From the NCBI GenBank assembly GCA_947561715.1, contig OX387199.1, positions 749,001-813,000 on the forward strand: a stretch of 64,000 nucleotides of DNA, given 5' to 3'. The stretch comes from Ascidia mentula. Its lineage: Eukaryota; Chordata; Ascidiacea; Phlebobranchia; Ascidiidae. The notes under the pieces were generated by a model, which saw only the letters and a list, made by a program, of their open reading frames with translations, was not told the DNA's origin and made no database searches. Every line of letters begins with the position of its first letter. The first letter of the stretch is position 1. The translations under genes and the position numbers were made by a program. Shown here piece by piece: positions 14,783 through 56,236 of the stretch.

Positions 14783-15220
14783 TTACTCATCGTCAGCATC
14801 TATTAAAATACAAAATATTCTTTAAAGCAGAGTTTCCGGGCAAAATGTTGAGAATCACCTGCCTTAAATAATCTTGCGCATTGAGTAGTTATCAACTACA
14901 CACACAGTAATGTTGTTGTACCTTTCATGTCCTGCAATTCAAACAAGTCCATAAGCATATCTGCTGCCTCTTGGATGTCCGATTCTTCATCCCATGGCAC
15001 GTCCACCCTGTTAAGTTTTAATTATTTGGTTCGCGTGGTGTTACTAAGCAACATGGCGCAGTTTAAAATTCCAAATATGGCATCGTTTACTTCAACAATA
15101 TTATAATTGCATTATTTTTTTGAATTTAGGAAAACAAGTATTTTTTTACCCTCCGTTGTTGCTTGTTCGTCCGCCGGCACAGTGAACAACAGAAAACATG
15201 CAACTGGTTAAAATCAACAT
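14783..15220 (-). CDS. Small secreted peptide, SNNGG family member 1 (57 aa)
   Basis: Exons 15150-15220, 14922-15007 and 14783-14799 close in frame. Exon 1 gives a hydrophobic leader (MLILTSCMFSVVHCAGG) then RTSNNGG and ends in phase 2 at a GTAAAA donor. Exon 2 gives VDVPWDEESDIQEAADM, then LMDLFELQDMK, and ends in phase 1. Exon 3 is five acidic residues, DADDE, and TAA. Predicted mature product: a very acidic, probably helical peptide of about 40 residues with one Trp. No known family is recognised. Support comes from the shared SNNGG exon, the shared Trp-Asp motif and identical intron phases in seven neighbours. Confidence 0.72.
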
Positions 15221-15957
15221 CCCCAAACAAAAAAGTGGAAACCTTCATCTCTATTATTTTCACTTAAAATCTCTATCAAAGAAAGTAGTTTTTAGTTTGC
15301 CTCGTGTTCAGATCCATACCCATATTATCGCTACTCAACCGAAGTTGATTTTAGTTTGTGAAAGTATCTGTGCCCCCGCCCAAATCCACACACCCAAATC
15401 GAAAAGTAACATGAAATTGTTCCCTTCTCACAGCCAACCCTCCACGCTACCTCCAACTAACATGACATCCCTATGTCACAAACTCAAGTACTGAAGCTTT
15501 GAGTAAGGATACGTTTTATTATCGGTCTTTGAATATGACATCCTGTTTACCGCTTGCTTTGCGGGAGTTAGAGTGTAGGGAAATGGTAAACAATCAAACA
15601 CCAAATAGTTTCCTCATAGATGTGCTGAAAGTTTTCCCGAAAAAGATATCACTGAGAACGATGGAGCCCTGTTCGATACAACTAACTTAAAACAATGTTC
15701 ACTTACAATTCAATAAGCCGCGGTTGAATTGCAGCATTCTGTGCGTTACTGCATGCACACTGAAGCTGCAATTGTGTTCATGGCACGGATGATAACGCGA
15801 TGGCAAAATATATATCGCTTTGGGATTCAACTTATTTCCTTTCTAAATACTTTACAATGTTTTTTATTGTATATGTTTCCTACGACCAAAAAATTAAATT
15901 GTCCATCCTTAAATATCGTATAGTTTTTTCCTGATCTTCCGCAAGGATAATTTTTTT

Positions 15958-16330
15958 CTATCCATCCTCTGTGTAGGATTTCATAACTTTTGTGAGGCCT
16001 GAAAGTAGAAACGTGTATGTTGCTATATTTCGTGTGAAGTTCTGCGTGTAATTACAACATTCGCATACATACTGACATCAGTTTCAAGTACGCCCACCTT
16101 TGAATATTTCCCTCATTATTTCTGCGAATAATTTGTCCATTGTTTCATCTTCAACGAAGCATGAGTCCTAATTGACCGAAATCTTGTAATGAAAAGCACA
16201 TGAAATCGCACCAAGCAACTCATGCTCCTGATCATGAATACTTTCTTGAATTATTTGAAGTCACGTGTCTCACCCTCCGTTATTGCTGTTTCGTGACGGA
16301 GTTGCGAGTCCATTAGAAGTGCCCAAAACA
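15958..16330 (-). pseudogene. SNNGG family member 2, probably inactive
   Basis: An exon ending at 16274 encodes TPSRNSNNGG and has a good GTGAGA donor. Its open frame is preceded by a stop and has no ATG. The next family-like exon (about 16.10-16.17 kb) reads DSCFVEDETMDKLF, then AEIMREIFK, but only in a frame that does not fit the phase-2 junction; in the joined frame a stop follows after about 17 codons. A terminal mini-exon with EDG and TAG lies at 15958-15968. Either a signal exon farther upstream was missed or this copy is dead. Confidence 0.45.
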
Positions 16331-17135
16331 ACTGGAAACCAATATTAGTCCGAATTTTGTAACCAAATTTGTCATTTTTGATTTCTATTTAAAACCTAAA
16401 TGAAGTTTTCTTGACTTTTCGTAAACCACGTGACGAGAACTTGCTGTTATTTCGTTCTGTTAAGATAACGATGCGATTCTTTACTTGATAGAATTACAGA
16501 AGTGTGGTAAAAGTGGATGGTCTCGGTTGCAATATATGCGATAACTATAGTTGGTGGTAACGTAATTGAGCAGATCTCTGGACACTGCGCGTTTTCTACG
16601 TTTTTCTTAGTTCGCACGTGTTGTGCAGACTGACCATACAGGCGATTTCATGCATTGTAACCGTGGGTAAGACCACAACTCTGTACAGGTACTTTGAACG
16701 TCGTCCCTATCAACGTATATTGTGTTGATGCCGATCAACAACTACCTTGTTATTAGCGATTCTTGTTTGATATTACAGCGGTGAAAAGTAAAGTGTCTCC
16801 TTTAAGTGATGAAACCATTAGATTTCGCTTTTTAATTTTCACCGTATTGGCTGCACTTAAGCGCGTTGTCTTGGTGAAACGTCATCTAATTAATATTATT
16901 TTACCAGGAAAGATTTTTAATTGACTGAACATTATGCCTGATGGTGTCAGCAACAAGTTGCATTAGATTTTTAAACCAAATCATGGAAATTATTCAACAC
17001 TTTCCATGTAACCTCAGCAACGACAAACACGTGTAACTTTGCGTAACTTGAATCAGTTTAATTTCAACTAAAATCGGCATTGACTTGTAAATTTGAGCCA
17101 TTCCGTTGCAAATATTCAGCTTGCGTCGTCCACGA

Positions 17136-17859
17136 TCAGAAACCATCATCTCCGTCATACTTATGAATGTTTTCGATATCTGCAAATTCGGAAACTATTT
17201 AAAATTATTTGTTTTTACGTTCGAGTGAAGTAAATGCCATGCAGCATGAAAATATTGTTCACCCGTTTTGTTATACAAACTATACAATTCTACTAACATT
17301 ATGAAATACTACAAAAGTATTTCTATATACTTGTACTAAACCTTTTATTATCCGTGTGGTCATTATATCGGCGAGTGTTCTTTCTAACTCCCTCATTTCC
17401 ATCTCATCCCACATAACACTCCATGAAGCTCCGTTACTAAAAAACAAAAATATTCGCACGTGTTTTCTCCAATTGGTCTCGTTTGCTTGTAGGGAACATT
17501 GAGAGTCGACCCTTTATGGACCTGCCTCAACCTAGTGCGATCGGAGACTTGTTGGTACAGGGTGATGATGAAAAAGTGGGGACTTAGGGAGGGCTCAACC
17601 ACATACAAATCTGACAAGGACACAAATGCAATACCTACTGACTTGCCTCCTCCTGTCTAAAGTATACAGCCAAGAGGACAAAGTGTCCTAAACACTCATG
17701 CCAGAACATATGTTAATCAACGGATCAGCGACAAAATGTGTGACGCAATACTTAACGTTGCGTAATAACCCACCCTCCATTGTTGCTGGTGAGGATGGAG
17801 ATTGCGCAACATTCTACAATCAAAATAAATCCAATCGCTATCGTGACACTGTTCATCAT
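17136..17859 (-). CDS. Small secreted peptide, SNNGG family member 3 (74 aa)
   Basis: Exons 17774-17859, 17342-17436 and 17136-17179 close in frame. Exon 1: leader MMNSVTIAIGFILIVECCA, then ISILTSNNGG, phase 2. Exon 2: NGASWSVMWDEMEMRELE, then RTLADIMTTRIIK, phase 1. Exon 3: DIENIHKYDGDDGF and TGA. The Trp-x-x-Met-Trp-Asp block and a helix ending in ..IIK match members 4 and 5. Predicted secreted. Function unknown. Confidence 0.74.
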
Positions 17860-20677: not shown

Positions 20678-21517
20678 TCAGTAGCCATCATTTCCGTCAT
20701 TCCTTTGAGCTCTTCTGATATCTACAAAATATTAGGTTTGTTTTAAATACTTCCCAATTATTTTGATGATATGCGCGCTAACTTTGGACATCAGACGCTG
20801 CTCGCCTTTCTCAAACTATAACAGCATTGTGATGTAACTGAGGGCAGAATATTTATGTTTACATACTATTGGTTACGTTTGGATGGTTTAATATACTCTG
20901 ATACGAGTGGATCAAATTAAATTTTAAATCTTAAAATTTTTAAAACCAAACCATGAATTGAAAGTTTCGCGCAAAATCCATTTCCTCACTCGGAAATAAC
21001 GGATAGAATTATTTAATTAAACATTTATTTCATATTTTGTTTGTTTAGGAAGTGGATTGTTGACTGCTGATATTTGTTACACCTGAATGAAATGCTGCAA
21101 AACAGCATGCGCAAAATTTTGTAAGACTTTACATTCAACAAACTGCTATATTGTTTCTCATTATGGTTTTTAAAACTGATATTTGCGTTTGTATTAACTT
21201 TCCTGGACCTTCTATCATTCGGCTCCTCATCATGTCAGCAATTGTTCTGTCGAAATCTGATATCGCATCCCACATAATCCTCCACACAAACCGATGACTA
21301 AAAAACAACAAAAAGTTTTCTGCATTCTTTGTATAAGACAAGAGGTAAAACTGTTGAACTTGTGACGTAACAGTAGCGTATTATTAAAATACAGAATAGT
21401 ACGCAACACAATTAAGCCCTACCCTCCATTGTTGCTGTGATGAAAGACACCCTTAAATGAGTCCACGCTACAGACCACAACCAACAGAAGTACGAACACT
21501 ATCGCCACGCTCTTCAT
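20678..21517 (-). CDS. Small secreted peptide, SNNGG family member 5 (75 aa)
   Basis: Exons 21423-21517, 21209-21297 and 20678-20721 close in frame. Leader MKSVAIVFVLLLVVVCSVDS, then FKGVFHHSNNGG; exon 2 HRFVWRIMWDAISDFDRTIA, then DMMRSRMIE; exon 3 DIRRAQRNDGNDGY and TGA. It is a recent tandem duplicate of member 4. Leader and exon 2 are almost identical, while the segment between leader and SNNGG differs in length and charge. Confidence 0.78.
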
Positions 21518-22187: not shown

Positions 22188-23211
22188 TTAAGACCAATAG
22201 ATTCTGTCCTCGTCGTCAACCGGCAATAATTCCATATCTGTGGAAGTAAATTGATATTTGATTACTTTCTACACTGCATAATAAGTGCGCTGTAACACTT
22301 CTATAACCACGTGTTACCAACTAATATAACCAACTATTGCGTTGTTTATTCAGCAGAATGATTTCGCCAGCCAGTGATGTATTGTGGCACGCAGTTGGAT
22401 TAGTGGGGAGTCATATTTTGCTTGTATGTTTTTGTGTTATTTAATGTCTAATATACGGAGCAAAAAGTGACCCCTAAACAGTGGAGCTTTACCGCCATTG
22501 TTTTTACCTTTTACGTTTACTCGTTTTTATTAACTCATATCGTTTAGCCTACGTTTAAGCAAAGAACACTGTTTTAAGTTTGTTCAACGAACCATATTCT
22601 TGTTTAGTATCCTCGTTCGACCGACCCACTTCGAGCTCTGTCAACTCACGAATAATTTCTTCAAACTTTTCCAACTTTTCGGCTTCTTTATCCCACATAT
22701 TCTGCCAACCACTTTTGCTGGAAGCGCTTAAAACATTTTACAACAGTTCTATTTGCTTTGTCGTTTATGTCAGGGAGATACTCGCAGTACTTTATGTGTT
22801 GTCGGCACAAACGTCAATCTATTACTTAGAAGGAAATGGTTGATTTTATGTTACGGTTTGACTGACAGGATTCCGCAATGTCAACAACAGAACAGGAATC
22901 CATCACCTCATATATATTTTGAACAAAGTAAACAAAGGTAAGAAATTTCTTTGCTGCACCTGAAGAAGCGAGATCACGAAAGCTCGTGCTAATAAACTGG
23001 TTTCATAGTCAGTCCCTTATAGAAGCAGTGCACCAGCAAGCAATATATATTCAAAGGTAAGAAACTAATTTGTCTCGAATAACTTAGGTTTGTTTGATAT
23101 TTCTTACCCTCCGTTGTTACTTGCGATGGCAGACATACTTGCTGCACACACAGATGTCTTCGAGATTTCGCACATTGAGATAAGATACAACAAAAACAAA
23201 CCAACAAGCAT
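22188..23211 (-). CDS. Small secreted peptide, SNNGG family member 6 (about 92 aa)
   Basis: Exon 1, 23108-23211: leader MLVGLFLLYLISMCEISKTS, then VCAASMSAIASNNGG, phase 2. Exon 2 starts at 22717: KSGWQNMWDKEAEKLEKFEE, then IIRELTELE, a charged helix. Its donor is uncertain: phase-1 GT sites exist at 22592 (used here) and slightly upstream. Exon 3, 22188-22237: DMELLPVDDEDRIYWS and TAA. The model closes with the 22593-22717 exon. Confidence 0.68.
22955..23065 (+). repeat. Interspersed hairpin element (inverted copy at 42.65-42.75 kb)
   Basis: GCACCTGAAGAAGCGAGATC and ACGAAAGCTCGTGC form a hairpin, followed by a segment ending AGTGCACCAGCAAGCAATAT. The reverse complement of the whole arrangement appears at about 42640-42750. 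The two copies are diverged, so this is an old interspersed repeat. Confidence 0.55.
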
Positions 23212-29738: not shown

Positions 29739-30059
29739 ACAATCTTCCTCCATACAAATGCTCGGCGACGATTTGTGATTTTTTATTTGTACTTCGAATG
29801 TGAATAAATACATTCCGAAAAATAAGATGGTGTCGAAATTCCTTCTTCAATCATCTCTGTGCGGAGTTTTACTTTGGTCTATGTAGGCTGTAATAAATGT
29901 TTGAGGCATGTTACAACATTTGTTACGTTCAGCCATTTGCCAAAGAACACAGAAATTCAATACTTACGTTTTGAGTATTATTAAGGCATCGTTTTAGTTC
30001 TTTTAACAGAGAAAACAAAATGATAAGCGCAGAATCGTTGTTCGTTACCAATTTGTTTA

Positions 30060-30392
30060 TTAAATAATGTTTTTACCTTTGAAAAGATCCTGGTCAGACA
30101 CCGACCACTCATCAAAAAGATCAAGCTCTTCCAATTCACTTTCATCATTGCTCTCCGCTCTGTAACGTAGTAATATAAGTAAAGCATTGTCGTGTCAAAT
30201 ATCGGATTACAAAAGTTGTTCATTGTGGTTGGTTTAAAGTCAGCATTAAGTTGTTAGAATGCGGTCACTACCAAAGTTGTTGATATTTCTTAAAACTGCC
30301 AGAAGATTGTTGCATATCGCTTACTCTTGTCCGTTGCAGTTATCCGTGAATACCATCCAGCACACAAGAAATATTATCACTAACTTGTTCAT
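30060..30392 (-). CDS. Small acidic secreted peptide, second family, copy 1 (55 aa)
   Basis: Exon 1, 30325-30392: leader MNKLVIIFLVCWMVFTDNC, then NGQ, phase 2, GTAAGC donor. Exon 2, 30060-30159: EAESNDESELEELDLFDEW, then SVSDQDLFKGKNII and TAA. A minus-strand AATAAA overlaps the position just past the stop, supporting a two-exon gene. A splice at GTAAAA inside exon 2 is possible but not needed. The mature part is about 30 residues, rich in Glu and Asp. No known family; it resembles the SNNGG genes in layout and phase but not in motif. Confidence 0.7.
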
Positions 30393-30614: not shown

Positions 30615-31240
30615 TAAAAGTAGCGGGAAAGTCTTCTGCCTGTTGAGCTTGATGAAAACATATGTCGGTGTTAAAACGACACGTTGCATTTTGTATCGGA
30701 AAGCTCGGAACTTGGTTGTTGGCAAATGAAGTGGACACGTCACGCTACATACATATGTTGCATTGCAAACCTCTACTAGAACTGGTTTTATCAGTATCTG
30801 TATGGGTAACTTTGGAACATTACATGATGTTGAACACATTTGACACATTATGCATTATTTTTACTTGGCATGTGATATAACACACGATGACAAGGCGACG
30901 GATCAGAAGACAAACACCAATTGCTTCTTCGAAACGTAAACCAAGTTTTTGTCAATACAGGTGAGACTTTTCAGGGTTAATGGCATTTCAAACCACGATC
31001 CAAAACCGCTGCAGGAAAAACGTTTTCTTCGGCAGTAGGTCTGGGTTGGTATTAAGCAAGCTTAAATCTTCTTTCGTTGCAGACTGAAAACGGCGCTTTT
31101 CGAGCTGTTACGTAATGCTTTGGAACAAAAGTACTTGCCAATGTTTTCATTCCTTTTTTCCCGCGGTCGGCAGTTAGTCACGTGATAAAAGTAGCGGGAA
31201 AGTAGTTTCTGCCTGCTGAGTTTGATGGAAAATACTACTA

Positions 31241-33317: not shown

Positions 33318-36300
33318 TTAATCTTCTAGATCTAAAAAAAATAACATTGTTCAGTGGCAAATAAAATCATTGGCAACGAAACGGAAATTATAATTATTTT
33401 GCAACTGTTGTAAGGTAACATACATACATCATCATCAACTGATTTTTATCCAAAATTAAACACAACAAACGCATTAAAAGGGTTGGGGCGGATGGAGTAC
33501 AAATGTTGGCTGGAAGGTTGGTTTATTGTTTATTGCTGCTATGGTAAACAACTCCTTTAACAACAAGTATCAGAAATCACCTTCATCATTGACTTCGTAA
33601 CGGCTAATCCAAGTTTTGTCATCCAGTAAGTTTTCATGTTCCAAGTCCGTATCCCGAGGGTCTACTTCTATACAAAATGTAAAAATGCACAAATCATTGT
33701 TTAAACAGCCACAAATGGCTCAATTACTTTCGGAAAAGTAATTCGTCACCGTATTTCCCAAAATATTTTTATTCCATTGCGTAATTAAATATGTCCACTT
33801 TAATCCTTTTGGATATAACAATGTATCATATGTGCATCTTACCTAGATCGCCCGCCCCGTCGCGACCAAAACTTTCCTCATCTAGTAAAGTTTCCTGATC
33901 AAAGATCGAATCTCCACTCTCCATTTCTATACAAGTTGTAAAATGCACAAATTATTGTTTAAACAGCAACAATTGCTTCATACCAGAGTAAATTTGATAA
34001 TTAGGAATTTCCCCATAAGTTCATGCAAAAAATCTTGAAAAAATATTTCTGTTGAATCTGGATTTTCAATTCTAGAAATAATTTTAGCCTTTTTTCCTTT
34101 CGTTAACCACAAAGTGTACAAAAAAGGTATTTTAATGTCAATATTTATATATAGGACAATCTTACTACGAGCATCCCTCAGCACTGCTGCATATTCATTT
34201 GACACCTCCCCCAACTCATCTGTAACATTATAACGTGTTTAGCGCAAAGTACGGGCTGTGTTGCTTTGTCATTTCAGCATGGTATGGGACCTCTGGTTTA
34301 TTTGTAACCACGGCCGTTTCTTGGCCAAATTCAGTACTTTATACGGGGTTGGCCGCGATGATAAAAAAAATAACATCCGTGAATTTTGCTTTCACAAATT
34401 GTGGTGACCTTGTTTTGGTACAAGTTTATACCAAGCCCCGACACAACACGTCACATTTATTACTTTACAGTATAACAATGTATCGTATGCACATCTTATA
34501 CCTTCATCGCCAGTCGCGTCTCCACTCTCCATTTCTATACAAGTTGTAAAAATGCACAAATTATTGTTTAAACAGCAACAATTGCTCCATACCAGAGTAA
34601 ATTTGATAATTTAGAATTTCCCCATAACTTCATGCAAAAAATCTTGAAAAAATATTTCCGTTGAATCTGGATTTTCAATTCTAGAAATAATTTTAGCCTT
34701 TTTTCCTTTCGTTAACCACAAAGTGTACAAAAAAGGTATTTTAATGTCAATATTTATATATTGGACAATCTTACTACGAGCATCCCTCAGCACTGCTGCA
34801 TATTCATTTGACACCTCCCCCAACTCATCTGTAACATTATAACGTGTTTAGCGCAAAGTACGGGCTGTGTTGCTTTGTCATTTCAGCATGGTATGGGACC
34901 TCTGGTTTATTTGTAACCACGGCCGTTTCTTGGCCAAATTCCGTACTTTATACGGGGTTGGCCGCGATGATAAAAAAAATTACATCCGTGAATTTTGCTT
35001 TCACAAATTGTGGTGACCTTGTTTTGGTACAAGTTTATACCAAGCCCCGACCCTGATGTTGACTCATTAACTTTCACAAAATTTAAAAGGAACACTTTTT
35101 GCCACAAACTACACTAACCGTCAAAGTCATTTACTTTTTCTCCGTAAGAATCCCGGTTTTCAAGTTGGTCTTGTCGCCAAATCTGATCGAGCGCTGAAAT
35201 ATTAATTAAATTTTAAATAAATTGATTTTACCAATATAAATTCATCCCCATGCATTTCATTAGCGCTGTTTTTGTTGTTTCAGGTAAACAAAAAATCAAA
35301 CCTTAATTTGCGATTAAAAACCTGTTCGTTAAGTTACTGTTTAGTATTCGTGTAAAAATGCGTTTGATTTGCCAAATATCGCTATAATATTTTCCCTGGC
35401 GGTTTATTAATTAAAATCAAAACTTTTACAACCACTGTGAAATTAACATTTTCGAAAATTAACAACACAACACGTCACATTTAGTACTTTACAATATAAC
35501 AATGTATCGTATGCACATCTTATACCTTCATCGCCAGTCGCGTCTCCACACTCCATTTCTATACAAGTTGTAAAAATGCACAAATTATTGTTTAAACAGC
35601 AACAATTGCTCCATACCAGAGTAAATTTGATAATTTAGAATTTCCCCATAAGTTCATGCAAAAAATCTTGAAAAAATATTTCTGTTGAATCTGGATTTTC
35701 AATTCTAGAAATAATTTTAGCCTTTTTTCTTTCGTTAACCACAAAGTGTACAAAAAAGGTATTTTAATGTCAAAATTTATATATTGGACAATCTTACTAC
35801 GAGCATCCTTCAGCACTGATAACAATTTCTTTTTCACCTCCCCCGACTCATCTGTAACATTATAACGTGTTTAGCGCAAAGTACGGGCTGTGTTGCTTTG
35901 TCATTCCAGCATGGTATGGGACCCTCTGGTTTATTTGTAACCACGGCCGTTTCTTGGCCAAATTCCGTACTTTATACGGGGTTGGCCGCGATCATAAAAA
36001 AAATTACATCCGTGAATTTTGCTTTCACAAATTGTGGTGACCTTGTTTTGGTACAAGTTTATACCAAGCCCCGACCCTGATGTTGACTCATTAACATCAA
36101 CACGAAATTTTGCCGCACCAAAATCGGAAGAAACGCTTTTTGCCACAAACAACCCCACTAACCTCCAAATGCAAATCCTTCATCTCCGTCTGTTTCCCGT
36201 CTTTCAAGCTCGTCTTGCCCCCTCTGGTCGGGCGCTAAAATATTTAATTGAACTTTGAATAAATTGATCTTACCAATATAAATTCATCCCCATGCATTTC

Positions 36301-38174
36301 ATTAGCGGCGCTCATTGTTGTAGTTTCAGGTAAACAAAAAATCAAACCTTAATTTGCGATTAAAAACCTGTTCGTTAAGTTACTGTTTAGTATTCGTGTA
36401 AAAATGCGTTTGATTTGCCAAATATCGCTATAATATTTTTCCTGGCGGTTTATTAATTAAAATCAAAACTTTTACAACCACTGTGAAATTAACATTTTCG
36501 AAAATTAACAACACAACACGTCACATTTAGTACTTTACAATATAACAATGTATCGTATGCACATCTTATACCTTCATCGCCAGTCGCGTCTCCACTCTCC
36601 ATTTCTATACAAGTTGTAAAAAAGCACAAATTATTGTTTAAACAGCAACAATTGCTCCATACCAGAGTAAATTTGATAATTTAGAATTTCCCCATAACTT
36701 CATGCAAAAAATCTTGAAAAAATATTTCTGTTGAATCTGGATTTTCAATTCTAGAAATAATTTTAGCCCTTTTTCTTTCGTTAACCACAAAGTGTACAAA
36801 AAAGGTATTTTAATGTCAAAATTTATATATTGGACAATCTTACTACGAGCATCCCACAGCATTGATGGCAATTTCTTTTTCACCTCCCCCGACTCATCTG
36901 TAACATTATAACGTGTTTAGCGCAAAGTACGCCCTGTGTTGCTTTGTCATTTCAGCATGGTATGGGACCTCTGGTTTATTTGTAACCACGTCCGTTTCTT
37001 GGCCAAATTCCGTACTTTATACGGGGTTGGCCGCGATGATAAAAAATTAAATCCGTGAATTTTGCTTTCACAAATTGTGGTGACCTTGTTTTGGTACAAG
37101 TTTATACCAAGCCCCGACCTTGGTGTTGACTCATCAACGTCACCATCAAATTTTGCCACACCAAAATCGGAGGAAACGCTTTTGCCACAAACAACACCAC
37201 TAAACACCAAATGCAATTCCTTCATCTCCGTATGTTTCCCGTTCATCAACTTCATGTGGCCACCGTGAATTGGCGTCATTCGGTGCTCGAATATTTAGTT
37301 AAATTTGACGAAAGCAAATATTTAAACTTATTTTTGTCCTCCTACATAACGAAAATTTTAAAATAGAAAACAATCGACCCGGAGGCAGACATTGTTGCGT
37401 TTTTCTTTTCAAATATCGCAATAATAGTTTTTTATGGTGGTTCAAACAATTAATATCAAATGTTTAACATCCATTGTGAATGTAGCATTTCCCCTTTTTG
37501 AAACGTAGTCGAACATTTGTGCACAGCGAAGTAGCAGAGTGTAAATTTGTGCACGAATCCTGTCTGATTATTTGCAAGCTTAACTCCCGAAAATCAAAAC
37601 TTTTCCACCCATTGCGAATTTACATTTTCTATTTGAAACTCGACAGAGTGACGTCACATCAGGTATTTCTATAACTTACCGTCAAAATTCTTGAAACAAA
37701 GACACCAATTATTAAAACTGGAATTAATGTTCATTTAAAACTATACAGAACATTAATGCTACAAGAAATCTACCAATTAAAATCGCCCAGAAATCTGCTT
37801 AAAATTCATCAACGTTATTCCTAAACATTTTAACCAGTTGTGAAATCAACTATGTTCCCTTTAATACTTTAGAATATAACAATGTATCAGATGTGCATCC
37901 TACCTAGATCGCCCGTCTCATCTTTAAAAAAACAGAGGTAGTCAAGTTAGGAATGCTCTGTTATTACTCATTATCACTAACACTTCAATTCGATCTTACC
38001 AGACAAGACGTCCCCCAGTAGATCAATCTTCACAAATCTGCAAAAGGAAAACACTGCTTTGTACAAGGTTTGCCTAAATCGAGAATGCAAGTATATCAAA
38101 ATGGATTGTTACGTCACTTACCGTCCTGTGACGCAATAGGCAAACAGCAGAACAACAACAATCGACTTATTCAT
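33318..38174 (-). CDS. Modular acidic secreted protein, third family, copy 1 (about 276 aa, 15-16 exons)
   Basis: Signal exon 38122-38174 (MNKSIVVVLLFAYCVTGR, phase 2), then 38000-38037 (FVKIDLLGDVLS) and 37904-37921 (DETGDL). A threefold A-B-C array follows. A exons: 37208-37285, 36163-36234, 35119-35193 (e.g. APDQRGQDELERRETDGDEG). B exons: 36844-36897, 35798-35851, 34775-34828 (e.g. DELGEVSNEYAAVLRDAR). C exons: 36572-36604, 35526-35558, 34502-34534 (EMESGDATGDE). Then an extra B at 34166-34219, a long C at 33843-33926 (ending RDGAGDL) and a last exon at 33570-33667. All internal exons are phase 1 at both ends and divisible by three. The gene ends with TGA at 33570, or by splicing at 33580 to a mini-exon DLED plus stop at 33318-33331; both close in frame. 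Function unknown. Confidence 0.68.
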
Positions 38175-39235: not shown

Positions 39236-39476
39236 AAAGTGCTTCCTTTCTTTAATCATCTGAATGGTATTCTAGCGTGCCCTAGGTACACTGTAATAAA
39301 CGTTTGTTGCATGTTATGACGTTTGTTAAACGTTCAGCCATTTGCTACGTAACTATGGAAGTCAAAAATTACATATACGCATTAGTAAGGTATCCCTCTG
39401 GTTCTATAATTTTTAAAAGTTAAAACTAACAGAAAAAAATTATCTACACACAACCAATGCTTATTTACGAGATTTT

Positions 39477-39812
39477 TTATTGAATATTGTTATTACTTCT
39501 TAAAAAATCTTCGATAGACAGCGAATTTTCATCAAAAGAATCAAGCTCTTCCAATTCACTTTCCTCATTGCTCTCCGCTCTGTAACGTAGTAATATAAGT
39601 AAAGCATTGTCGTGTCAACTATCGGATTACAAAAGTTGTTCATTGTGGTTGGTTTAAAATCAGCATTACGTTGTTAGAATGCGGTCACTACCAAAGTTAT
39701 TAATATTTCTTAAAATTGCCAGAAGATTGTAGCATATCGCTTACTCTTGTCCGTTGCAGTTATCCGTGAATACCATCCAGGACACAAGAAATATTATCAC
39801 TAACTTGTTCAT
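39477..39812 (-). CDS. Small acidic secreted peptide, second family, copy 2 (56 aa)
   Basis: Exon 1, 39745-39812: leader MNKLVIIFLVSWMVFTDNC, then NGQ, phase 2. Exon 2, 39477-39579: EAESNEESELEELDSFDEN, then SLSIEDFLRSNNNIQ and TAA. The stop overlaps a minus-strand AATAAA. The second half of exon 2 has diverged much more from copy 1 than the leader or intron has. Lies in the right copy of the segmental duplication. Confidence 0.7.
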
Positions 39813-42750: not shown

Positions 42751-44289
42751 AAGACACGTGACATTGGTATTTGAACCTGAAGACACGAGGTTATCAAAAC
42801 AGTACCCCAGCAGAAAGTACTGTAATTATATGTCGCATAGTTTGTGACAAAAGCGGGATTTTAAACCAGTATTTTGCCTTTAACTTTAACACGAATTCCG
42901 TGCCACTGCGATGCGTATTGTATGATTCTGTTGTATTTTAACAGGCTCAGACAATTTTGATTGATTTTTAGAATGACTAATGAATAGAAAAATCGGTTTG
43001 ACCATCCTGAATGTGATGACAGTGAACATTAGGGTTATTGTTTAAGCGGACATGCTGTTGGCAATACACAAATTGTGTCAATTAATTTTAACATCAATAA
43101 AATTATAATAAAAACGATACTTAAACCTATCTAATACACTTAAATATTGTGGACACTCCATATTCTGAACATGTTAGAAACAGTTTCTTTTCGAAACAGA
43201 GGTAATTTACAACCATGCAACAGGAATGCAATCTACTAACTGGTCGTGATACGGATATAATCAACATGGGATTCCCCTTAGTTGAGATTGATGGTTGGTG
43301 CAACGTCAAAATGAATAGTTTAACAGTGAAATTATTCATATCCATAAACATCATATACAATCGACGTTCATATCCCAATGTCTTCTATCATTTTCACTAA
43401 TTAGCGTTATCTGCCTGATTACTTTCATCTGTTTTTAATTATTTCCAAACACTACGTGAATTAAAGGGCATTTTCCATAAACACCCAATGCAGGATGTTG
43501 ATTGTAAAAACTAAATTACTCAAGTCTAAACGCTCTTTCAACAGCAACCAAACATGTTTATCATAACATTAGTGTTTATAACACTTTTGCCTAATATTAA
43601 TATTTTTTTATCACAGGTGTTTAAACAGCTATGGTACAGGGGTTGCAAAATGCCAATTGACCAGTTGGGGACGAATAGTTGCAAATGAATTGCGATGTCA
43701 CAACAGAAAAAGAGCATTTGTTTGTTGCTGGTACATAAACAGTTTGTCCGGGACAAATTGATTTCATAATAATATTACACTGTGTTCGCTACAACCTTTG
43801 CCTAACTGCTGAATAATCTCTTGGCGGCAGTAGTTTGGGACGTGAGGCCTTACAGTAGCTGAAAGGGAATTTAATCTGCAGTGTGCGCTTTATTTTACAA
43901 AACTTTCAATTAAGCGCCCTGTTTATAACCATGTTGTGGCTTTTCAATGCTTCCTACTAATGTGTGCAAAGGTTAAAACCAATTTTCTTCCACTACAGTT
44001 ATGGTGGAGGATGTTTGTGGTCAGTTGAATATTATCATGGTGAACCGTGGACGAGACGCTAAGGCTTGAGGCCTTGCTGCAAGAAGGTAATATGCGAGTA
44101 TTAACGGATACCGATTTTGATATACCTGGAATTTAATTTAAAGGTTCACTGATTTGCATAAGATTTATTTCCAAATACACAGAGGTTTAATATATTTCCG
44201 CTTATAATATAGAATTTTGTAATATATTTATAACATAGAATTCAGCACAGTCCGTCCTTATCGCTTCACTCAATTAGAAAAGATGTTCC

Positions 44290-46288
44290 TTAATCTTCCA
44301 GATCTAAACAAATAACAGTGTTCAGTATCAAATAAAAGCAATTACAATCAAATGGGCATTGTATAGTTATTTTACAAATATGGTAAGATAACATACTACA
44401 TTATCATCAAATGATTTTAATCTGATAAAATTCACAAAAGGAGACCACATCAGGTATTTGCAACTTACCATCAAAATGTGAAGAATCTCTCACTAGAAAC
44501 AAAAAAAAAACAGCAAAAATTAAACAGAAAAAAGTAAAAACTGTTCGACACATTAAAAATATAAATAAAATCATGGGGTATTTAAAAGTCAAATTTTTTA
44601 CAGGGGAAAATCTGACTACGAGCTTCTTCCTCACCCGAAAGATCTTTCTTTATAGGTATCCACTTATCTGTAACGTTATGAACTGTTTTTTTTAAAATCT
44701 TTGCCAAAAACAATATTTTTTTAAATTAAAAGGAACACTTTTGCCACTAATAACACCACTAACCGTCAAAGTCATTTATTTCATGTCCGAAAGTATCCCG
44801 TCTTTCAAGTTCGTCTCGCCTCCTCTGATCAGGCGCTGAAATATTTAATTGAATTTTACGGAAATTGTTTTTCCAATATTAATTTATTTTAATTTTTTTG
44901 AAACGACAACAAAACTCACCTTCTTCATGGACGACCCAACTTTCCTCATCTGGGAAGTTTTCCTGACCAAAGTTCGAATCCAAAATCAAACCAGATTCCA
45001 TGTCCATTTCTAAACAAATCTTTAATTCACAATCGCTTCATTTATTTTTGGAAAAGTTTGTGAAAAACACATTTATTTTTTTCTAATAAAAAGAAACACT
45101 TTTGCCACCAATAACACCCGCACTAACCGTCAAAGTCATTTATTTCATGCCCGAAAGTATCCTGTCTTTCAAGTTCGTCTCGCAGCTTCGGATCGAGCGC
45201 TAATATATTTAATTAAATTTTGAAGTGATTGACATTACCAATATTATTTTATTCTATATTCTTAAAGATTTTTACCCATTGTGAAATTAGCTATGCCTCT
45301 TTTATTACTTTAGAATATAACAATGTATCGTATGCACATCTTATACCTTCATCGCCAGTCGCGTCTCCACTCTCCATTTCTATACAAGTTGTAAAAATGC
45401 ACAAATTATTGTTTAAACAGCAACAATTGCTTCAAACCAGGGTAAATTTGATAATTAAGAATTTCCCCATAAGTTTATGCAAAAAATCTTGAAAAAATAA
45501 TTCTGTTGAATCTGGGTTTTCAATTCTAGAAATAATTTTAGCATTTTTTTCTTTCATTAACCACAAAGTGTACAAAAAAGGTATTTTAAGATCAAACTTT
45601 CGAATCCCAAATCAAACCAGACTCTATGTCCATTTTTAAACAAATCTTTAATTCACAATCGCTTCATTTATTTTTGGAAAAGTTTGTGAAAAACACATTT
45701 ATTTTTTCCATAATTAAAAGAAACACTTTTGCCACCAATAACACCAGCACTAACCGTCAAAGCCATTTATTTCATGTCCGTAAGTATCCTGTCTTTCAAG
45801 TTCGTCTTTCTGTTGGGCAGCTGAAATATTTAATTGAAATTTAAAGAGATTGATCTTACCAATATTATTTTATTCTTATTCCATTTTAACGTTTTAACGC
45901 ATTGTAAAATTTGCCTCCTTTATTACTTTAGAATGTAACAATGTATCGTATGTAAACCTGAACTTGATCGCCCGTCGCGTCTTTAAAGACATCATCTGGG
46001 ACGACGCAATTTTAAACAAAACAGAGGTATTAAATTAAGAATGCTATGTTATCCCAGCATAGAATAAAACCCCAAGCTTATTACACACTAACTTGAGAAC
46101 AAAAAAGCGATCTTACCCAATGGGGCACCCCCTGGAGGACCAGTCACATATCTGCAACAGGAAAAGAAAATTTTATACAATATGCGCCTCAATCGAGATC
46201 GCAAGTAAATCGAAATGGATTGTTACGTCACTTACCGTCCTGTGACGCAATAGGCAAACAGCAGAACAACAGCAATCGACTTCTTCAT
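44290..46288 (-). CDS. Modular acidic secreted protein, third family, copy 2
   Basis: Signal exon 46236-46288 (MKKSIAVVLLFAYCVTGR) and 46117-46151 (YVTGPPGGAPL). A exons: 45755-45820, 45128-45199, 44764-44835 (e.g. APDQRRRDELERRDTFGHEI). C exon 45347-45379; long C exon 44920-45009 (MDMESGLILDSNFGQENF, then PDEESWVVHEE); B exon about 44617-44667 (DKWIPIKKDLSGEEEAR). Then 44469-44492 (VRDSSHFD) and terminal DLED with TAA at 44290-44303. Coding exons are phase 1 and divisible by three. Two exons look dead. The one near 45.98-46.0 kb has lost its in-phase donor. A C-type block near 45.61-45.64 kb has lost its acceptor (TTTAA for TTTAG). Exact exon usage needs transcripts. Confidence 0.6.
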
Positions 46289-47330: not shown

Positions 47331-48170
47331 AATCGAAAGCCAAATTTTTCCAAAGTACGCGGTAGGCGACCATTATATTTCAAACCAACTTCAAATGAAG
47401 TATTTTTTCAACATTTTATTGAAACTAACAACGTGGTTCCAGTTGAGTCTTACTTGTTTGTCAAAGTTTGAAAATGCTGCATGAAGCCAAGCTCAGTGAC
47501 CGTTCAGTCAGTTTATTTTACGCAAAACAAATCGTCCACTCATAGTGAAGTAATTTTTTAGCATTTTTCCACACGAAAGGATTTTCATTGCGGGTTCGAG
47601 TCCCACCATCTGTTGCAACCCAAAGAATTGTTTTCTCTTCGAAACGTAAAAATCGAATAAAAAAGTTTAAAATTTGGTTCTGCTTGTCGTAAACCACAAA
47701 ATGTGAATTATTTTTGGACTGTCATGACCCCGTACTTTAAGTTTCTGTATATTCATACAACTACGCTCTTCATTCGTGCATTGAAAAGTCTAATCCAGCT
47801 ACAATCATCTTTTCTAACTGATAGAATCGACGATATTGTTTTCAAGCATATTTATTTGCGGCTAAATACAAGTAAAAATAGATCCGTTAATCAAGATAAC
47901 ATGATTCCACATAGAGATCGTATCAATCATTTGGGGAAATCGTCTCTTCGTTCTAGAATGGATTTTTTTTATTTTTTATGAGGTTTAGTTTTAAAAGCAA
48001 CGCACGTATAGAGTTCTAAATTGATTTCGCAACTCCGTAAATATGGCATGTTTGGGTAAAAAAATACGTTATTATATCCGACATTTTTCTTTTTAAATGT
48101 AAGAAATCAAAACTTGCACAATATTATTGGGCAAAACCTTGTCAAATACTTACAGGACTATTAGGTTTAC

Positions 48171-48392
48171 AGGCTTCGCAGCCTAGGCATTGCAGCCTAG
48201 CTGGATCAGCCACTCTCTCATGACAAATAGAAGCGAGATAGGAAATATCTTGTTCCATTGTGTACCTTGGCAACAATATACCGAAGAACTGTCGGTAGAG
48301 TGTTTGATCTTGTTGATTTTTCAGATCTCGCTCCGACTTGTCGGGAAAATGTTCCTGATCCAGCTATACTGCAATGCCTTGGCTGCGAACCT
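48171..48392. mobile_element. Foldback element
   Basis: Left arm 48171-48209 (AGGCTTCGCAGCCTAGGCAT to AGCTGGATCAG) is the near-perfect reverse complement of 48354-48392 (CTGATCCAGCTATACTGC to GGCTGCGAACCT). A second, weaker pair continues inward (GAAGCGAGATAGG with AGATCTCGCTCCG). The apparent long plus-strand frame across it is a by-product. Confidence 0.6.
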
Positions 48393-48516
48393 TTTGATCT
48401 CGATACGAAACCGTGGTGGCCAAGTAAGGGCATGCACAGTGGGGCGATTTATAGTGCGAAAGCATGCAACATTACCACGTTGTGTATGAGTATACATGCA
48501 TACAAGACTCAAATAT

Positions 48517-50544
48517 TTAATGTTTTTTGCAACAACATCGAAACTCACCTTCTTCATGGACGACCGAACTTTCCTCATCTGGGAAGTTTTTCTGATCAAA
48601 GTTCGAATCCCAAACCTCAATTTCTGTACAAATTGTAAAAATGCACGAAAGATTCTCAATTCAGAAACAATTTGAGCGACAAAAAGTTCAAGAACAAATT
48701 CCTAAAAAACCCGATTGTAAGGATGGAGTGTTCTCCCTATGAATCTGGAGTAACATATCAAATGTACATCTGACTTGCATCGCTCAGTAAGTGACAAATA
48801 ACGTTTGCTTAAATAGTCCCGAATTTTTCTTTTCGGGATTCTTCTTTGTTTAAAATTTCTATCGTGATATTTTCACTTAAAAATCCGCCGCCTTAATTCT
48901 CTTAACCACAAAATACATGAGAACAACACACTTCCAACAACGTTACTTTTTGCCATCGGAAATTCCCTAAAGCAGGACCTCAAACACCCAGGAACTCCTG
49001 TGCTTTTTGTGCAGCCCGTAAACCATTGTGAAATATCACATAGTGTATAGTTTTAAAGTATGTGGCCAACCCGAAAACTTGCTACGTTTATTCCAAAACC
49101 AAGATGGCTACACAATAGATACAAGGTTTTAAGGTAGTACGCAGATATATATGTTTCTTTTAAGTTTCAACCGCTGCCCGACCTCCAAGATATCGACAGA
49201 ACACATGATTCAATGACTTTGCTATATTTGCAGCCAATATGGAAGCACGAATGAATGTCAACAACTTGTCATTTCCATTGAGGCCGTTTTTAGATTAATT
49301 AAGACTGAATACGTGAGAGGAAATGTGTGTGTTCCTATTATGTATTATGTGTGTTGTCATTTACTATGCGACCCTCGAGATACTTTTAAAGTTTTCATTT
49401 GTCTTCAGGGGAAATTTGAGACCCCAACCCCCAAGTTACACTGCATAACACATACCTCCATCTCCCATCGAGTCAACTTAAAAAAAAACAATATGTAAAA
49501 ACTGGAATTAGTTGCAATTGAAATTTGTTCAGCACATTACCACAACTGAAATAAGTTAGGTGTACTACAGTAACGAGCAAATCAATCTTATTCCACTTTG
49601 ACACACGATGAACTAAATCACGTTACGAAACGTCATCACTTACGTCCAAGGCCAAATCCTTTATTCCCGGCAGTTTCCCAAGCGTCAAAATGATCACGTA
49701 ACGAGTCCCTCAACCCCAGATCTAGAATGTTTAAATACATTTAATAAAAACTTTCTTCATGATTTTTCTCTAAATTCCATTCGTGATCACTCGTTGTTGC
49801 GGTTGGATTTTAGTAATAAATACAAATCATTCTTTAACGACGAAACAAATGTATTTGTTTGTTCAGTTATTTAACTCAGGAAATTTGATGCTTTTGTTCT
49901 TGGAAAACGTCTTTTTGTGATTTAGTATTAATTTTTTATGATGGTCAACATTTATAATTCGATTGCGAAAAACAACTTTTATTCCCTTAAAAAAACATTA
50001 ATATGATTTTACAATCGTTTGTCTAACGCTGTGTCATACCTCGAAACCTCCTTTCTCTTCCTAGAAATGAATGAAGAGAACATTAAATCAAGAATATTCA
50101 ATCAACATCATTGAGATATCATTAAGACATGAATAAAGATATGTAAAAAAAATAAACAATTTATAAACGAGAAAATAAAACTATGACGGATTTGCGAAAC
50201 ATCTTGCGTCAAGCATACCAAGAGGCTGTGGTTTCAAATCCAACTGTTGTGTTTCCCTTTCACCTGTAAGATTATCAGTTGTTTGTCACACACTGCATAC
50301 TGTTTTTTTTTTTCTGTTGTAACACCACGTGGTGAAACCAAAGCTTATTAAACACTAAATCGTCACCTTTTTCACAATATGCAATCTTACCATTTGAGGT
50401 GCCCCGTCGATAGGCAGAAAGAACTCTGTAACATAGAGAGGCAGTTTTGTGCAAATTGTCATGGTCGCAAAACAAAAGAAAAATCAATTACCGTCCTGTG
50501 ACGCAATAAACAAACAGCAGAACAACAAAAATCGACTTATTCAT
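48517..50544 (-). CDS. Modular acidic secreted protein, third family, copy 3 (incomplete model)
   Basis: Signal exon 50492-50544 (MNKSIFVVLLFVYCVTGR, phase 2, GTAATT donor) and 50391-50425 (RVLSAYRRGTSN). Exon 49644-49721 (DLGLRDSLRDHFDAWETAG, then NKGFGLG) is A-like. Long C exon from 48623 (EIEVWDSNFDQKNFPDEESS, then VVHEE), which reads to TAA at 48517 if not spliced at 48548. These join in frame, but over 1 kb between 48.6 and 49.6 kb may hide further mini-exons. The final exon is uncertain. Confidence 0.5.
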
Positions 50545-53758: not shown

Positions 53759-54004
53759 TATCTCTCTTTTACTTTTAATCTGATTTTCTACACGTCTGAA
53801 TACAACAATATGTTTAGGAGAAACTTAATCTGATACGAAGCTGAAAGTCGATGAACTGACGATGGAATCAACACCAAGTATAACAACTGTGAGTAGTTTC
53901 GTGCGTCTGTTTTTAAACGTGGCAAAGTGGATGTGGATGATTTAACACAAAACTATTTTCACTGGAAGTTTGTGATTGGTCGACAGGCAACAGTTCATCA
54001 AGTT
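53759..54004 (-). promoter_or_regulatory. Conserved promoter and 5' UTR of third-family copy 4
   Basis: Nearly identical to 38175-38420 over its full length, including the CAGGCAACAG variant shared only with copy 1. Confidence 0.55.
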
Positions 54005-54770
54005 GTGGGGATGGTATGACAGCGTTAGTTGATTGATGTTGACTCGTTGGGATGTGATGGAAATTAAACACAGAGTTTAACCGTCATGTGTGGTCGGATG
54101 TATCTGTTTAATCTCGAATGCAGTCCTTTTTTTTATTTTCACGTTTATTCTCCACGTCCAGGGTTCGAACGGAAAAACAACTGTTTTGGTGCGAAATTGT
54201 AATTTGTTTTTGTAATTTTTAAGTAATGAAGAAAAACAAACGGGAAATAAAACTAATGTGAAAAAAACTATGTACTTTATTACCTCTTAAACCTCTGTGT
54301 GCTGTGGTACACGTAGAGATTTGCCGCAAAAGTTTCACCAAACAATGTTGACAAAGACATGACGTATTGTGAAAAATATAAGGAGCTTTTTTGTGTGTTG
54401 GACATTGAGGGTGTGCTTGCAGTGGAAATGTAAACGTGTAAATTCTTGTGGGCACAACACTGTGATTGACTGGTGCTGATGGAATGTTGTGGGAAATAAA
54501 TGAAAAATTAATGTTGGATCTTCAAAATGATTTGATTTCAGAGAAAAGAGGCGCACACTGTACGAATTAGTTTCTGTTATGATTTACACCTTTTAGATTT
54601 GTTTGGCGTTGTTATTATTGTGAATTTCCTGTAGAGTTTTGACGTTTGAAAGTTATGAGTGAATATCAGAATGTTGGCACAACACTGTGGAGCTGATGGA
54701 ATGTTGTGGGAAGTGATTGTTTTCGAACCATCCGCAGGTTGATGTATGACAATGTGTGTTGTGAGTCGTA

Positions 54771-55260
54771 TTCATATGAAGCTATAAGGCATATTTTGAT
54801 CTTTAAGTGTCCTTACCACCATGCAAATATAACCCTCAAACTAATAAAGTCCAACAAAACATAAACGAACCACGATCACTTCCAGTAGCAGTTATGACTT
54901 TTCGGCAGTTTTGGGGAAAACAATTTTTAATAGTTTTTTCTGTAACACTGCTTGTGCTCTTGGTATTGCCCTGATGAGACTTTCTTGCTGCTCTCTCACG
55001 TTTGGAAATGCTTTTCTCGAATCGTGAGTTTATGTTCGTTTGCATTGCAGAACAACACACTTCGTTACTGTATTGACGATTGTGCAAAATGAGTCTAAGA
55101 TACGATCGACAAAAAGTTTAAAATACGATCATCACTAAAATGTTTGGAAACGATAATATTTTTAAGCAGATTTATTCCCTAACATGACATGACAGATCAT
55201 GCTTGTAGTAAAGTAGTTTTTAGTTAATTTTTCACTGAACTTTTCTCTCCGTCGGGTTCT
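54771..55260. other. No supported gene
   Basis: 3' flank of copy 5. An 83-codon minus-strand frame at 54836-55087 has no splice sites or family motifs and is not called. Confidence 0.35.
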
Positions 55261-56236
55261 TTACCAACAAACAACAGGACCATCCCTGCGTCGTTCGTCG
55301 TCTCGGAGGACCAGCTTTCGCCCGTATTCCTCATCAGGAATAATTTCTCCGGTGCCCAAATCTAAATAAATGGCTTAAATTGTACAAACTAACATAAACA
55401 CATCACAATTATAGCCTGTAGTTTTATTCGCAACACATTGTGCAAAATCTCCAGCAAAATTATTGTTCTAAATCAATTAAGTTACAAACACCGTACAAGC
55501 AACACAACCCAGAAATGTTTTATGCAAACACATGACAAGCCATGATCGCCCCATCGCGAAAACTTACTTAGTTAGCTATCTTTAGATCATAAGATTCACT
55601 GGCGTCAGATAGAGCAGCCCAGCTGGTTTAAAACTAAAAAAACAGGCTTGATCCATCTTGGCTGCGATGTCAGTATAAACACAAATGACTACACAACCCA
55701 TTGTGAAGTTTAAAATGACCCCCGGGAAGGTAAGTGTAACAACATACCATGTATATACAACATGCCTTCATTATCACTTGAATCTCTTCCTTCAGGGAGC
55801 ATGAAAGATAGAGGAATTTGTTCCTCTTCCCACTGGTATATATCCAACGAATCTTCCTTCCCATCTGTAATATCATTAGTTGCTCAACGCACTCAGTGAA
55901 CCGTGTAACTCTCTTGTAGTGGGCATTTTACACAGTAACACGTCACACGTACCATCTAGTAACAAACCATGTGAAGCAAATAGTTTTTGATTTTCTGCCA
56001 CCTGGTCGCCTTGCTTTTCATCCGATACCACAAATCTGCAACGTATTTAAGATATTTGTAAAAAGTAAATAAAACTTTTTGACTTCCTCATGTTTCATAA
56101 ATTCAGACTGGTTCGGAACTTTTGAAGGTCAATGAATGTGACCCAATGAAGCAGAGCAACCGGGAACAAAAAGCTTCACTCACCGTCCTGTGACGTAACA
56201 AGCAACTAGAAAAACAAGAACAATCGACTTATTCAT
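55261..56236 (-). CDS. Modular acidic secreted protein, third family, copy 5 (117 aa, 4 exons)
   Basis: Exons 56184-56236 (MNKSIVLVFLVACYVTGR), 55953-56035 (FVVSDEKQGDQVAENQKLFA, then SHGLLLD), 55748-55864 (GKEDSLDIYQWEEEQIPLSF, then MLPEGRDSSDNEGMLYIH) and 55261-55361 (DLGTGEIIPDEEYGRKLVLR, then DDERRRDGPVVCW and TAA). They sum to 354 bases and close in frame with phases 2, 1, 1. Fewer and longer exons than its relatives; the upstream region is diverged. It may represent the ancestral, unexpanded form. Confidence 0.74.

What the first reader, a model, noticed from the sequence alone, without database searches (positions are those of the whole stretch)
14783..56236. A 41-kb cluster of about 16 small secreted acidic-protein genes with one shared gene plan
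Three sequence-distinct families lie in tandem on one strand: SNNGG (8 loci), MNKLVII-type (3 plus a relic) and MNKSIVV-type (5). All have a hydrophobic signal exon ending in phase 2, acidic downstream exons, and phase-1 boundaries at almost all later introns. The plan is kept while the mature sequences differ almost entirely. This is the pattern of one superfamily expanding under diversifying pressure. I recognise no described family.
Basis: partly seen in the sequence, partly recalled or inferred. Interest (0 to 1): 0.87.

Follow-up and report, generated by a model that had tools for sequence, protein, structure and literature searches.

The report
Sea-squirt cluster of fast-changing secreted proteins
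One stretch of a sea-squirt chromosome carries about fifteen neighbouring genes for small, probably secreted proteins of unknown kind, and in one group many of the tiny protein-coding pieces have changed far more than the DNA around them, as in genes caught in an arms race.

Summary
The window is inferred to be chromosome 3 of the ascidian Ascidia mentula, from contig lengths. Fifteen gene models plus two relics lie on the minus strand between 14,783 and 56,236, in families A ('SNNGG'), C ('MNKLVII') and D ('MNKSIVV'). First introns are phase 2 in 15 of 15 models; later introns are phase 1 in 42 of 43. Mature products are acidic in 13 of 15; A4 and A5 are basic. None of 13 models tested passes a Pfam cut-off. 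Genome searches with 5 of 15 models found one copy elsewhere, a broken partial D5.

New result: D genes are micro-exon genes, and 8 of 11 mature-exon comparisons (D5 excluded) diverge more than their introns. Between two D1 cassettes, introns differ by 2.9% but two exons by 29% and 20%; the latter is 11 replacements and 0 silent changes within 54 bases. However, 7 of 9 mature D exon pairs have dN below dS, so segment swapping matters as well as selection. Diversification is supported for D, weakly for C, not for A. Common ancestry of the three families is unproven. No transcripts were available; function is inferred.

The parts
14783..15220 (-). A1: 3 exons, 57 aa, ...SNNGG/VDVPWDEE..., terminal DADDE
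   Evidence: Exons 15220-15150, 15007-14922, 14799-14783; phases 2,1
16098..16390 (-). A2: relic. The SNNGG-plus-donor site is kept at 16287-16271, but the upstream signal-like frame ends in a stop before it; remnant of the second exon at 16140-16098 (outer bounds approximate, read by eye)
17136..17859 (-). A3: 3 exons, 74 aa
19027..19585 (-). A4: 3 exons, 83 aa, basic (net +8)
20678..21517 (-). A5: 3 exons, 75 aa; closest paralogue of A4
   Evidence: dN/dS with A4 0.34
22188..23211 (-). A6: 3 exons, 84 aa
26029..26412 (-). A7: 3 exons, 68 aa
26947..27788 (-). A8: family A without SNNGG; 4 exons (85 aa, ends 27100), or an alternative 3' exon (82 aa, ends 26947)
   Evidence: Trp-Asp shared with the other family A models
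29847..30392 (-). C1: 3 exons, 63 aa
31530..31595 (-). Relic of a C3-type second exon; no leading exon noticed
   Evidence: tblastn 73% identity over 22 aa, E 2e-8
33318..38174 (-). D1: 13 exons modelled, about 215 aa, with a tandem cassette of micro-exons (units at about 37.3-36.5, 36.5-35.5 and 35.5-34.4 kb and a partial fourth). Three further in-frame exon copies (about 37273-37206, 36897-36844, 34219-34166) were not put into the model. Terminal exon 33331-33318 (DLED-stop)
39256..39812 (-). C2: 3 exons, 61 aa
40919..41385 (-). C3: 3 exons, 59 aa
44290..46288 (-). D2: 10 exons, about 169 aa; terminal exon 44303-44290 (DLED-stop); the exons before it are less certain
47927..50544 (-). D3: 8 exons, 117 aa
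51955..53758 (-). D4: 7 exons, 127 aa
55261..56236 (-). D5: 4 exons, 111 aa; third intron GC-AG
   Evidence: partial broken copy on contig C73

Best explanation
This is a tandemly grown cluster, apparently private to this locus, of small secreted, mostly acidic and probably disordered proteins. Shown from sequence: a leading exon with a hydrophobic N-terminus followed by small exons in a fixed phase plan; D genes are micro-exon genes, and D1 carries tandem copies of a cassette of symmetric phase-1 exons; the leading exons, introns and 5' flanks of recent D copies are conserved while many mature exons are far more divergent, in one exon purely by amino-acid replacement, in another with a stretch that also covers neighbouring intron and looks swapped in. 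Inferred: the cluster makes a changing repertoire of extracellular proteins. Phase-1 symmetry lets exons be duplicated, dropped or swapped without breaking frame, and a constant promoter region and leader keep each new variant expressed and exported. The most likely role is binding to changing outside partners such as microbes at the blood, gut or tunic surface (immune effector or recognition), by analogy with other fast secreted repertoires. My estimates: real protein-coding cluster about 0.85; diversifying selection on D about 0.7 (lowered from 0.8 when the full list of exon pairs was recounted); immune or surface-defence role about 0.4.
For: Coding: rule-based scan, 30 open phase-1 symmetric exons, 23 acidic, versus a mean of 6.5 and at most 3 acidic in 30 shuffles. 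SNNGG plus donor site: 7 of 7 exact genome matches in the cluster. A4/A5 dN/dS 0.34. Divergence by part: D1 units 2/3, introns 2.9%, e5 29%, e6 20%, e4 and e7 3% each; D2/D4, introns 7.6%, e1 0%, e2 34%, e3 26%; D1/D4, introns 4.2%, e1 3.8%, e2 49%. Leading exon less divergent than introns in 6 of 6 comparisons. e6: 11 replacements, 0 silent, in 4 of 6 pairwise comparisons of its four copies, where flanking introns differ by 1.4-2.9% (0.55-1.1 replacements expected); outside the e5 block, 1 of 5000 shuffles gave any 54-base window with 11 differences. The D3/D2 exon pair has 7 replacements, 0 silent. Mature parts have 0-1 Cys; 13 of 15 have pI 3.1-4.5; 15 of 15 lie on the disordered side of a charge-hydropathy boundary, some narrowly.
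Against: No transcript or protein evidence. Signal peptides were judged by eye. Of 9 mature D exon pairs, 7 have dN below dS (ratios about 0.36-0.63) and only 2 lack silent changes, so much of the exon divergence includes silent sites and is better explained by older or swapped-in exons beside homogenised introns than by point selection. Exon e5's divergence runs about 100 bases into the intron. The 11 changes of e6 distinguish two exon versions (u1/u2 versus u3/u4) and may be few events, so the comparisons are not independent and a converted tract is possible. Micro-exons e4 and e7 diverge no more than introns. D5 against its chromosome-9 copy shows exons changing less than introns. C1/C2 is near neutral; A is mostly under purifying selection. 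Nothing found points specifically to immunity; no shared upstream motif was evident. No second species could be searched.
Confidence: 0.47

Rival explanations
1. Reproductive proteins: secreted by eggs, follicle cells, sperm or oviduct of this hermaphrodite (reproductive biology recalled) and diversified by sexual conflict or self/non-self gamete recognition.
For: Fast exon evolution in tandem secreted clusters is also typical of reproductive proteins (general knowledge); nothing separates this from defence.
Against: No expression data. Among 19 of the 74 listed ORFs of the neighbouring 14 kb that were scanned, no gamete-recognition domain was seen; some carry sub-threshold vWA and sushi matches, which fit several roles.
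Confidence: 0.2
2. Structural or ion-binding acidic proteins (tunic matrix, secretory-granule or metal-binding proteins), where composition matters and sequence is free to drift.
For: Asp+Glu 23-32% in D and 30-36% in C, predicted disorder; C1/C2 near neutral and 7 of 9 D exon pairs with dN below dS.
Against: Drift alone does not make exons diverge several-fold more than their own introns or give 11 replacements with 0 silent changes.
Confidence: 0.17
3. Precursors of short processed peptides (hormone-like or antimicrobial), the acidic parts being propeptide.
For: Leader plus acidic stretch resembles peptide precursors; the FSAP signal/propeptide model touches C3 (12.5 bits, E 0.15); A4 has a basic stretch.
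Against: 12.5 bits is far below that model's cut-off of 27; in most models no cationic segment follows the acidic ones (read by eye).
Confidence: 0.12
4. Three unrelated families that happen to lie together; the shared 2-then-1 phase plan is coincidence.
For: A exons hit neither C nor D; C and D match only at E 0.28-0.97 in the leading exon; no shared upstream motif evident.
Against: Same strand; same first-intron phase in 15 of 15 models; queries from all three families hit only this locus, apart from one partial copy and one weak hit. No other gene was noticed between them, though none was systematically sought.
Confidence: 0.35
5. Decaying or non-coding repeats; the exon models are chance open stretches.
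For: Two relics in the cluster (A2, C-type exon) and a frame-broken D5 copy on chromosome 9 show decay; no transcripts.
Against: Scan versus shuffles, A4/A5 dN/dS 0.34, leading exons conserved over introns in 6 of 6 comparisons.
Confidence: 0.08

Closest known systems
Bicycle genes of aphids (gall effectors; PMC9168663, passages read)
   Same: Many very small internal exons, nearly all starting at codon position 2 (intron phase 1); gene structure better kept than sequence; fast evolving. D1-D4 have 13, 10, 8 and 7 exons.
   Different: Mature proteins here have 0-1 Cys, so no CYC motif; mostly acidic; chordate; A, C and D5 have only 3-4 exons; expression unknown.
Micro-exon genes (MEG) of schistosomes (PMC10526429 abstract and introduction, PMC4350168 passages)
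   Same: Most of the coding region in very small symmetric exons; secreted; mature part with higher dN/dS than the signal part.
   Different: D internal exons here run 18-99 nt (27 of 32 at most 81 nt, 12 of 32 at most 36 nt, counted), MEG mostly 15 bp; alternative splicing not tested; unrelated animal group; no sequence comparison made.
Conotoxin and viperid three-finger toxin genes, ASSET (PMC3862624 and PMC2474615, abstracts and outlines)
   Same: Conserved introns with fast-changing mature exons; segments of exons swapped.
   Different: No cysteine framework, no known venom apparatus (recalled), probably disordered products, many exons in D.
SpTransformer (Sp185/333) immune genes of sea urchins (PMC5940198, passages read)
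   Same: Deuterostome family; leader exon; mosaic, disordered mature proteins.
   Different: Two exons only, glycine- and histidine-rich regions; here 3-13 exons and mostly acidic.
LEED..PEED genes of Medicago (PMC4199706, search listing only)
   Same: Lineage-private small secreted peptides with acidic domains.
   Different: A plant family; no relation implied.

Membership tests
Bicycle genes | At least 5 exons, many micro-exons | tested here: met
   Met by D1-D4 (13, 10, 8, 7 exons); not met by D5, A and C
Bicycle genes | Internal exons start at codon position 2 | tested here: met
   All 27 D internal exons after exon 2 are phase 1 on both sides, by model; rule-based scan
Bicycle genes | CYC motifs | tested here: not met
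   Mature parts of all 15 models hold 0 or 1 Cys
Schistosome MEG | Most of the coding region in very small symmetric exons | tested here: met
   D1-D4 only; A and C genes have three or four exons
Schistosome MEG | Signal peptide | tested here: inconclusive
   Hydrophobic N-termini by hydropathy in part of the models and by eye in the rest; no predictor available
Schistosome MEG | Alternative splicing makes variant proteins | not testable with these tools
   No transcripts held; A8 has two possible 3' exons
Schistosome MEG | Sequence homology to MEG families | not tested
   No MEG sequences were compared; Pfam gave nothing over cut-off for 13 of 15 models
SpTransformer | Two exons, leader plus one variable exon | tested here: not met
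   Three or more exons in 15 of 15 models
Conotoxin-like toxins | Cysteine framework in the mature peptide | tested here: not met
   0 or 1 Cys in 15 of 15; the framework as a defining feature is recalled
Frog-skin peptide precursors (PF03032) | Score over the Pfam cut-off | tested here: not met
   C3 12.5 bits against a cut-off of 27

The most novel reading that the evidence does not exclude
A chordate has independently evolved a bicycle/MEG-like micro-exon system: a single locus that builds a changing repertoire of secreted disordered proteins by duplicating and swapping symmetric phase-1 micro-exons behind a constant promoter and leader, with selection acting on single micro-exons, used in recognition of microbes or of other individuals.
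Probability: 0.3. Interest if true: 0.82.

Novelty: new variant of a known kind. Interest (0 to 1): 0.6.

Why it matters
Tiny exons in one phase, a constant leader and introns, and mature exons that diverge several-fold more than the introns are known from parasites' and predators' secreted weapons. Finding the pattern in a free-living chordate would suggest that this gene plan is a general solution for diversifying secreted proteins, and gives a compact 41-kb locus in which selection and swapping of single micro-exons can be measured from two haplotypes and public RNA-seq.

Tried and rejected
Shared upstream motif: 9-mers with at most 1 mismatch in the 400 bases upstream of 10 chosen genes reach at most 6 of 10, mostly AT-rich; no control was run; not pursued. 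CACGTG boxes: 22 in 43.8 kb of the cluster against 17 in 54 kb of flanks (L005, L007, L009, L010 and window 1-14,000), slightly denser, untested; not used. Family copies elsewhere: proteins of 5 of 15 models (A4, A8, C3, D2, D5) found only the chromosome-9 partial D5 copy beyond the cluster, and one weak hit on C67 (E 0.165) that was not followed. Domain homology: Pfam for 13 of 15 models (not A5, C2) gave nothing over cut-off; NCBIfam for 4 and PDB for 2 gave no hits. The A4/A5 exon-3 divergence of 59% is a misalignment across unequal introns and was dropped; the codon alignment is used. C1/C3 silent sites are saturated (dN 0.69) and give no ratio. That the seven SNNGG copies differ only at silent positions was first taken as a sign of constraint, but the copies were chosen by that peptide and pattern, so it is circular and is not used. 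Alignment A4 contained one mistyped row and was not used. In the script the terminal exons of D1 and D2 were cut to one base by a loose end motif; their ends (DLED-stop) were read. No tunicate other than this genome could be searched.
Full report
WHERE. The window is G000:C52:749001-813000 of a 195.8-Mb, 79-contig genome. C52 is 23,172,987 bp and the mitochondrial contig C79 is 19,461 bp. The Ascidia mentula genome note gives chromosome 3 as 23.17 Mb, MT as 19.46 kb and a span of 197.0 Mb (PMC11109543, passages). COX1 reads through under the ascidian code, with AGA/AGG as glycine.

WHAT IS THERE. Reading the minus strand and building exon models in a script gave 15 gene models. A1 and A3-A8 have 57-85 aa. 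C1-C3 have 59-63 aa. D5 has 111, D3 117, D4 127, D2 about 169 and D1 about 215 aa (its model omits three further in-frame exon copies). Relics are A2 and a C-type exon. Every model begins with an exon holding a hydrophobic stretch and ending in phase 2 (15 of 15); later introns are phase 1 in 42 of 43. Because models were picked for frame and splice sites, I rely on four tests that do not use them or that compare copies.

TEST 1, GENOME-WIDE SITE. AGYAAYAAYGGAGGGTR (Ser-Asn-Asn-Gly-Gly plus donor) occurs exactly 7 times in the genome, all in this cluster, on one strand, within 11.2 kb. One-mismatch matches (10) equal the reversed-pattern control (10). The seven copies vary at third bases, but that they vary only there follows from how they were chosen and is not evidence.

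TEST 2, RULE-BASED EXON SCAN. In 33.0-57.2 kb, symmetric open phase-1 candidates number 30 on the minus strand, 23 with net charge of -2 or lower. Phases 0 and 2 give 15 and 9 (1 and 0 acidic). The plus strand gives 5 in phase 1, 4 acidic. 30 Markov shuffles give a phase-1 mean of 6.5 and at most 3 acidic. Four 10-kb flanks, both strands, give 0-7 phase-1 candidates each, 3 acidic in one and none in the other seven. Repeated cassettes and nested candidates inflate the count. Over the A genes the scan shows no excess.

TEST 3, DIVERGENCE BY PART. D1 unit 2 versus unit 3: introns 2.9%, e4 3.0%, e5 29.2%, e6 20.4%, e7 3.0%. Unit 1 versus unit 2: introns 3.7%, e5-type 27.5%, e6-type 8.5%, e4 3.0%. 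D2 versus D4: introns 7.6%, e1 0%, e2 34%, e3 26%, one doubtful exon 13%. D1 versus D4: introns 4.2%, e1 3.8%, e2 49%. D1 versus D3: introns 11%, e1 5.7%. C1 versus C2: introns 16%, e1 1.5%, e2 19%, e3 39%. Against the trend: D5 versus the chromosome-9 copy, introns 22%, e1 9.6%, e2 17%, e3 14%; A4 versus A5, introns 33%, e1 20%, e2 9% (e3 misaligned, dropped). So leading exons are less divergent than introns in 6 of 6 comparisons. Mature exons outrun introns in 8 of 11 comparisons among D1, D2 and D4 (the exceptions are e4 and e7), in 2 of 2 in C, in 0 of 2 for D5 and 0 of 1 for A.

TEST 4, WHAT KIND OF CHANGE. For e6 (54 bases, four copies) the u1/u2 pair against the u3/u4 pair shows 11 replacement and 0 silent differences in each of 4 comparisons, with flanking introns at 1.4-2.9% (0.55-1.1 replacements expected; Poisson P at most 3.3e-8). 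u1/u2 shows 4.5 replacement and 0.5 silent; u3/u4 are identical. These comparisons share one split and are not independent. The differences stop at the exon edges; outside the e5 block 1 of 5000 shuffles gave any 54-base window with 11 differences. For e5 the silent sites are also far apart (dS 0.70) and the divergence continues about 100 bases into the following intron, which fits a swapped-in segment. Over the 9 mature D exon pairs (two of them D5 versus chromosome 9), 7 have dN below dS (ratios about 0.36-0.63) and 2 have replacements only (11:0 and 7:0). Whole genes: A4/A5 0.34, A3/A4 0.49, C1/C2 1.11, D2/D4 0.65 over a poor alignment; C1/C3 saturated. By exon, A4/A5 exon 2 is near 1 (0.097 against 0.104). 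So exon-over-intron divergence is the firm fact; selection on point changes is well supported for e6 alone, and swapping or homogenised introns must explain much of the rest.

PRODUCTS. With cleavage sites guessed by eye, mature parts have pI 3.1-4.5 in 13 of 15 (A4 12.0, A5 9.7), 0-1 Cys, and fall on the disordered side of a charge-hydropathy boundary in 15 of 15, some narrowly. Family A carries an invariant Trp-Asp in 7 of 7 models and, in A3-A6, a strong helical moment in the second exon (0.78-0.80; A1 and A8 0.56, A7 0.31).

PRIVACY. Searches of the whole genome with 5 of 15 models (A4, A8, C3, D2, D5) hit only this cluster, apart from a partial D5 copy on C73 (15,447,500 bp, matching chromosome 9) and a weak unexplored C67 hit. 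The C73 copy lies beside the same kind of 207-bp satellite that borders the cluster, and the satellite-edge sequence is duplicated with it; its first exon is frame-broken.

HOW IT LIKELY WORKS. Shown: constant leader and introns among recent D copies, cassette duplication, exon-confined replacement change in one exon, and a probable segment swap in another. Inferred: export, disorder, and a changing extracellular partner. The phase plan makes exons interchangeable, so duplication, loss and swapping keep the frame. I favour a defence or recognition role over a reproductive one only by analogy; the sequence cannot separate them.

COMPARISON. Bicycle genes share the micro-exons and the exon phase (PMC9168663 passages) but not the CYC motif. 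MEG genes share small symmetric exons and faster mature parts (PMC10526429 abstract and introduction, PMC4350168 passages). Conotoxin and three-finger toxin genes share conserved introns with fast exons and segment switching (PMC3862624, PMC2474615 abstracts). SpTransformer shares leader exon plus disorder in a deuterostome (PMC5940198 passages). None can be claimed as the family. Paper searches for a counterpart listed none: I saw 0, 15, 15, 15, 10 and 15 titles of 0, 15, 46, 1,620, 367 and 7,070 matching papers, in an open-licence library, so this is a weak negative.

VERDICT. A real cluster, a known kind of gene plan, and an unusual host. The strongest single fact is the exon-over-intron divergence in D. 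The weakest points are the lack of transcripts and of any second species.

Noticed in passing
57880-64000, continuing to about 831 kb of C52 (L006, L008): A 207-bp satellite of about 24 kb borders the cluster; the monomer is 69 codons and stays open in one frame over several copies (344-aa ORF at 58453-59487). Pfam matches to that ORF (S26e 4.9e-10 and others) have no stretch that passes on its own and look like repeat artefacts.
   Followed up: partly
L045 5009-5960 (C73:9,900,009-9,900,960): On chromosome 9 the same kind of satellite array is followed by its edge sequence and a partial, frame-broken copy of D5, so satellite edge and gene moved or were copied together.
   Followed up: yes
4900-12040: What look like two tandem minus-strand genes with signal-like starts, cysteine-rich exons and vWA-like exons, one with a sushi-like exon (sub-threshold Pfam matches), lie next to the cluster.
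   Followed up: partly
28537-29737: A 31-bp tandem array (38.7 copies, 97%) sits between families A and C; a degenerate relative lies at 39146-39227 beside C2.
   Followed up: no
31232-31479: A near-palindromic repeat of about 248 bp within the C region (73% self-inverted match).
   Followed up: no
27205-26947: A8 has two possible 3' ends, one by a phase-2 intron to 27100 and one by a phase-1 intron to 26947, which suggests alternative last exons.
   Followed up: no
32593-33450 versus 43262-44422: The 3' flanks of D1 and D2 are duplicated at 95% and 79% identity although the genes' bodies differ, so D1 and D2 share a block duplication or conversion.
   Followed up: no
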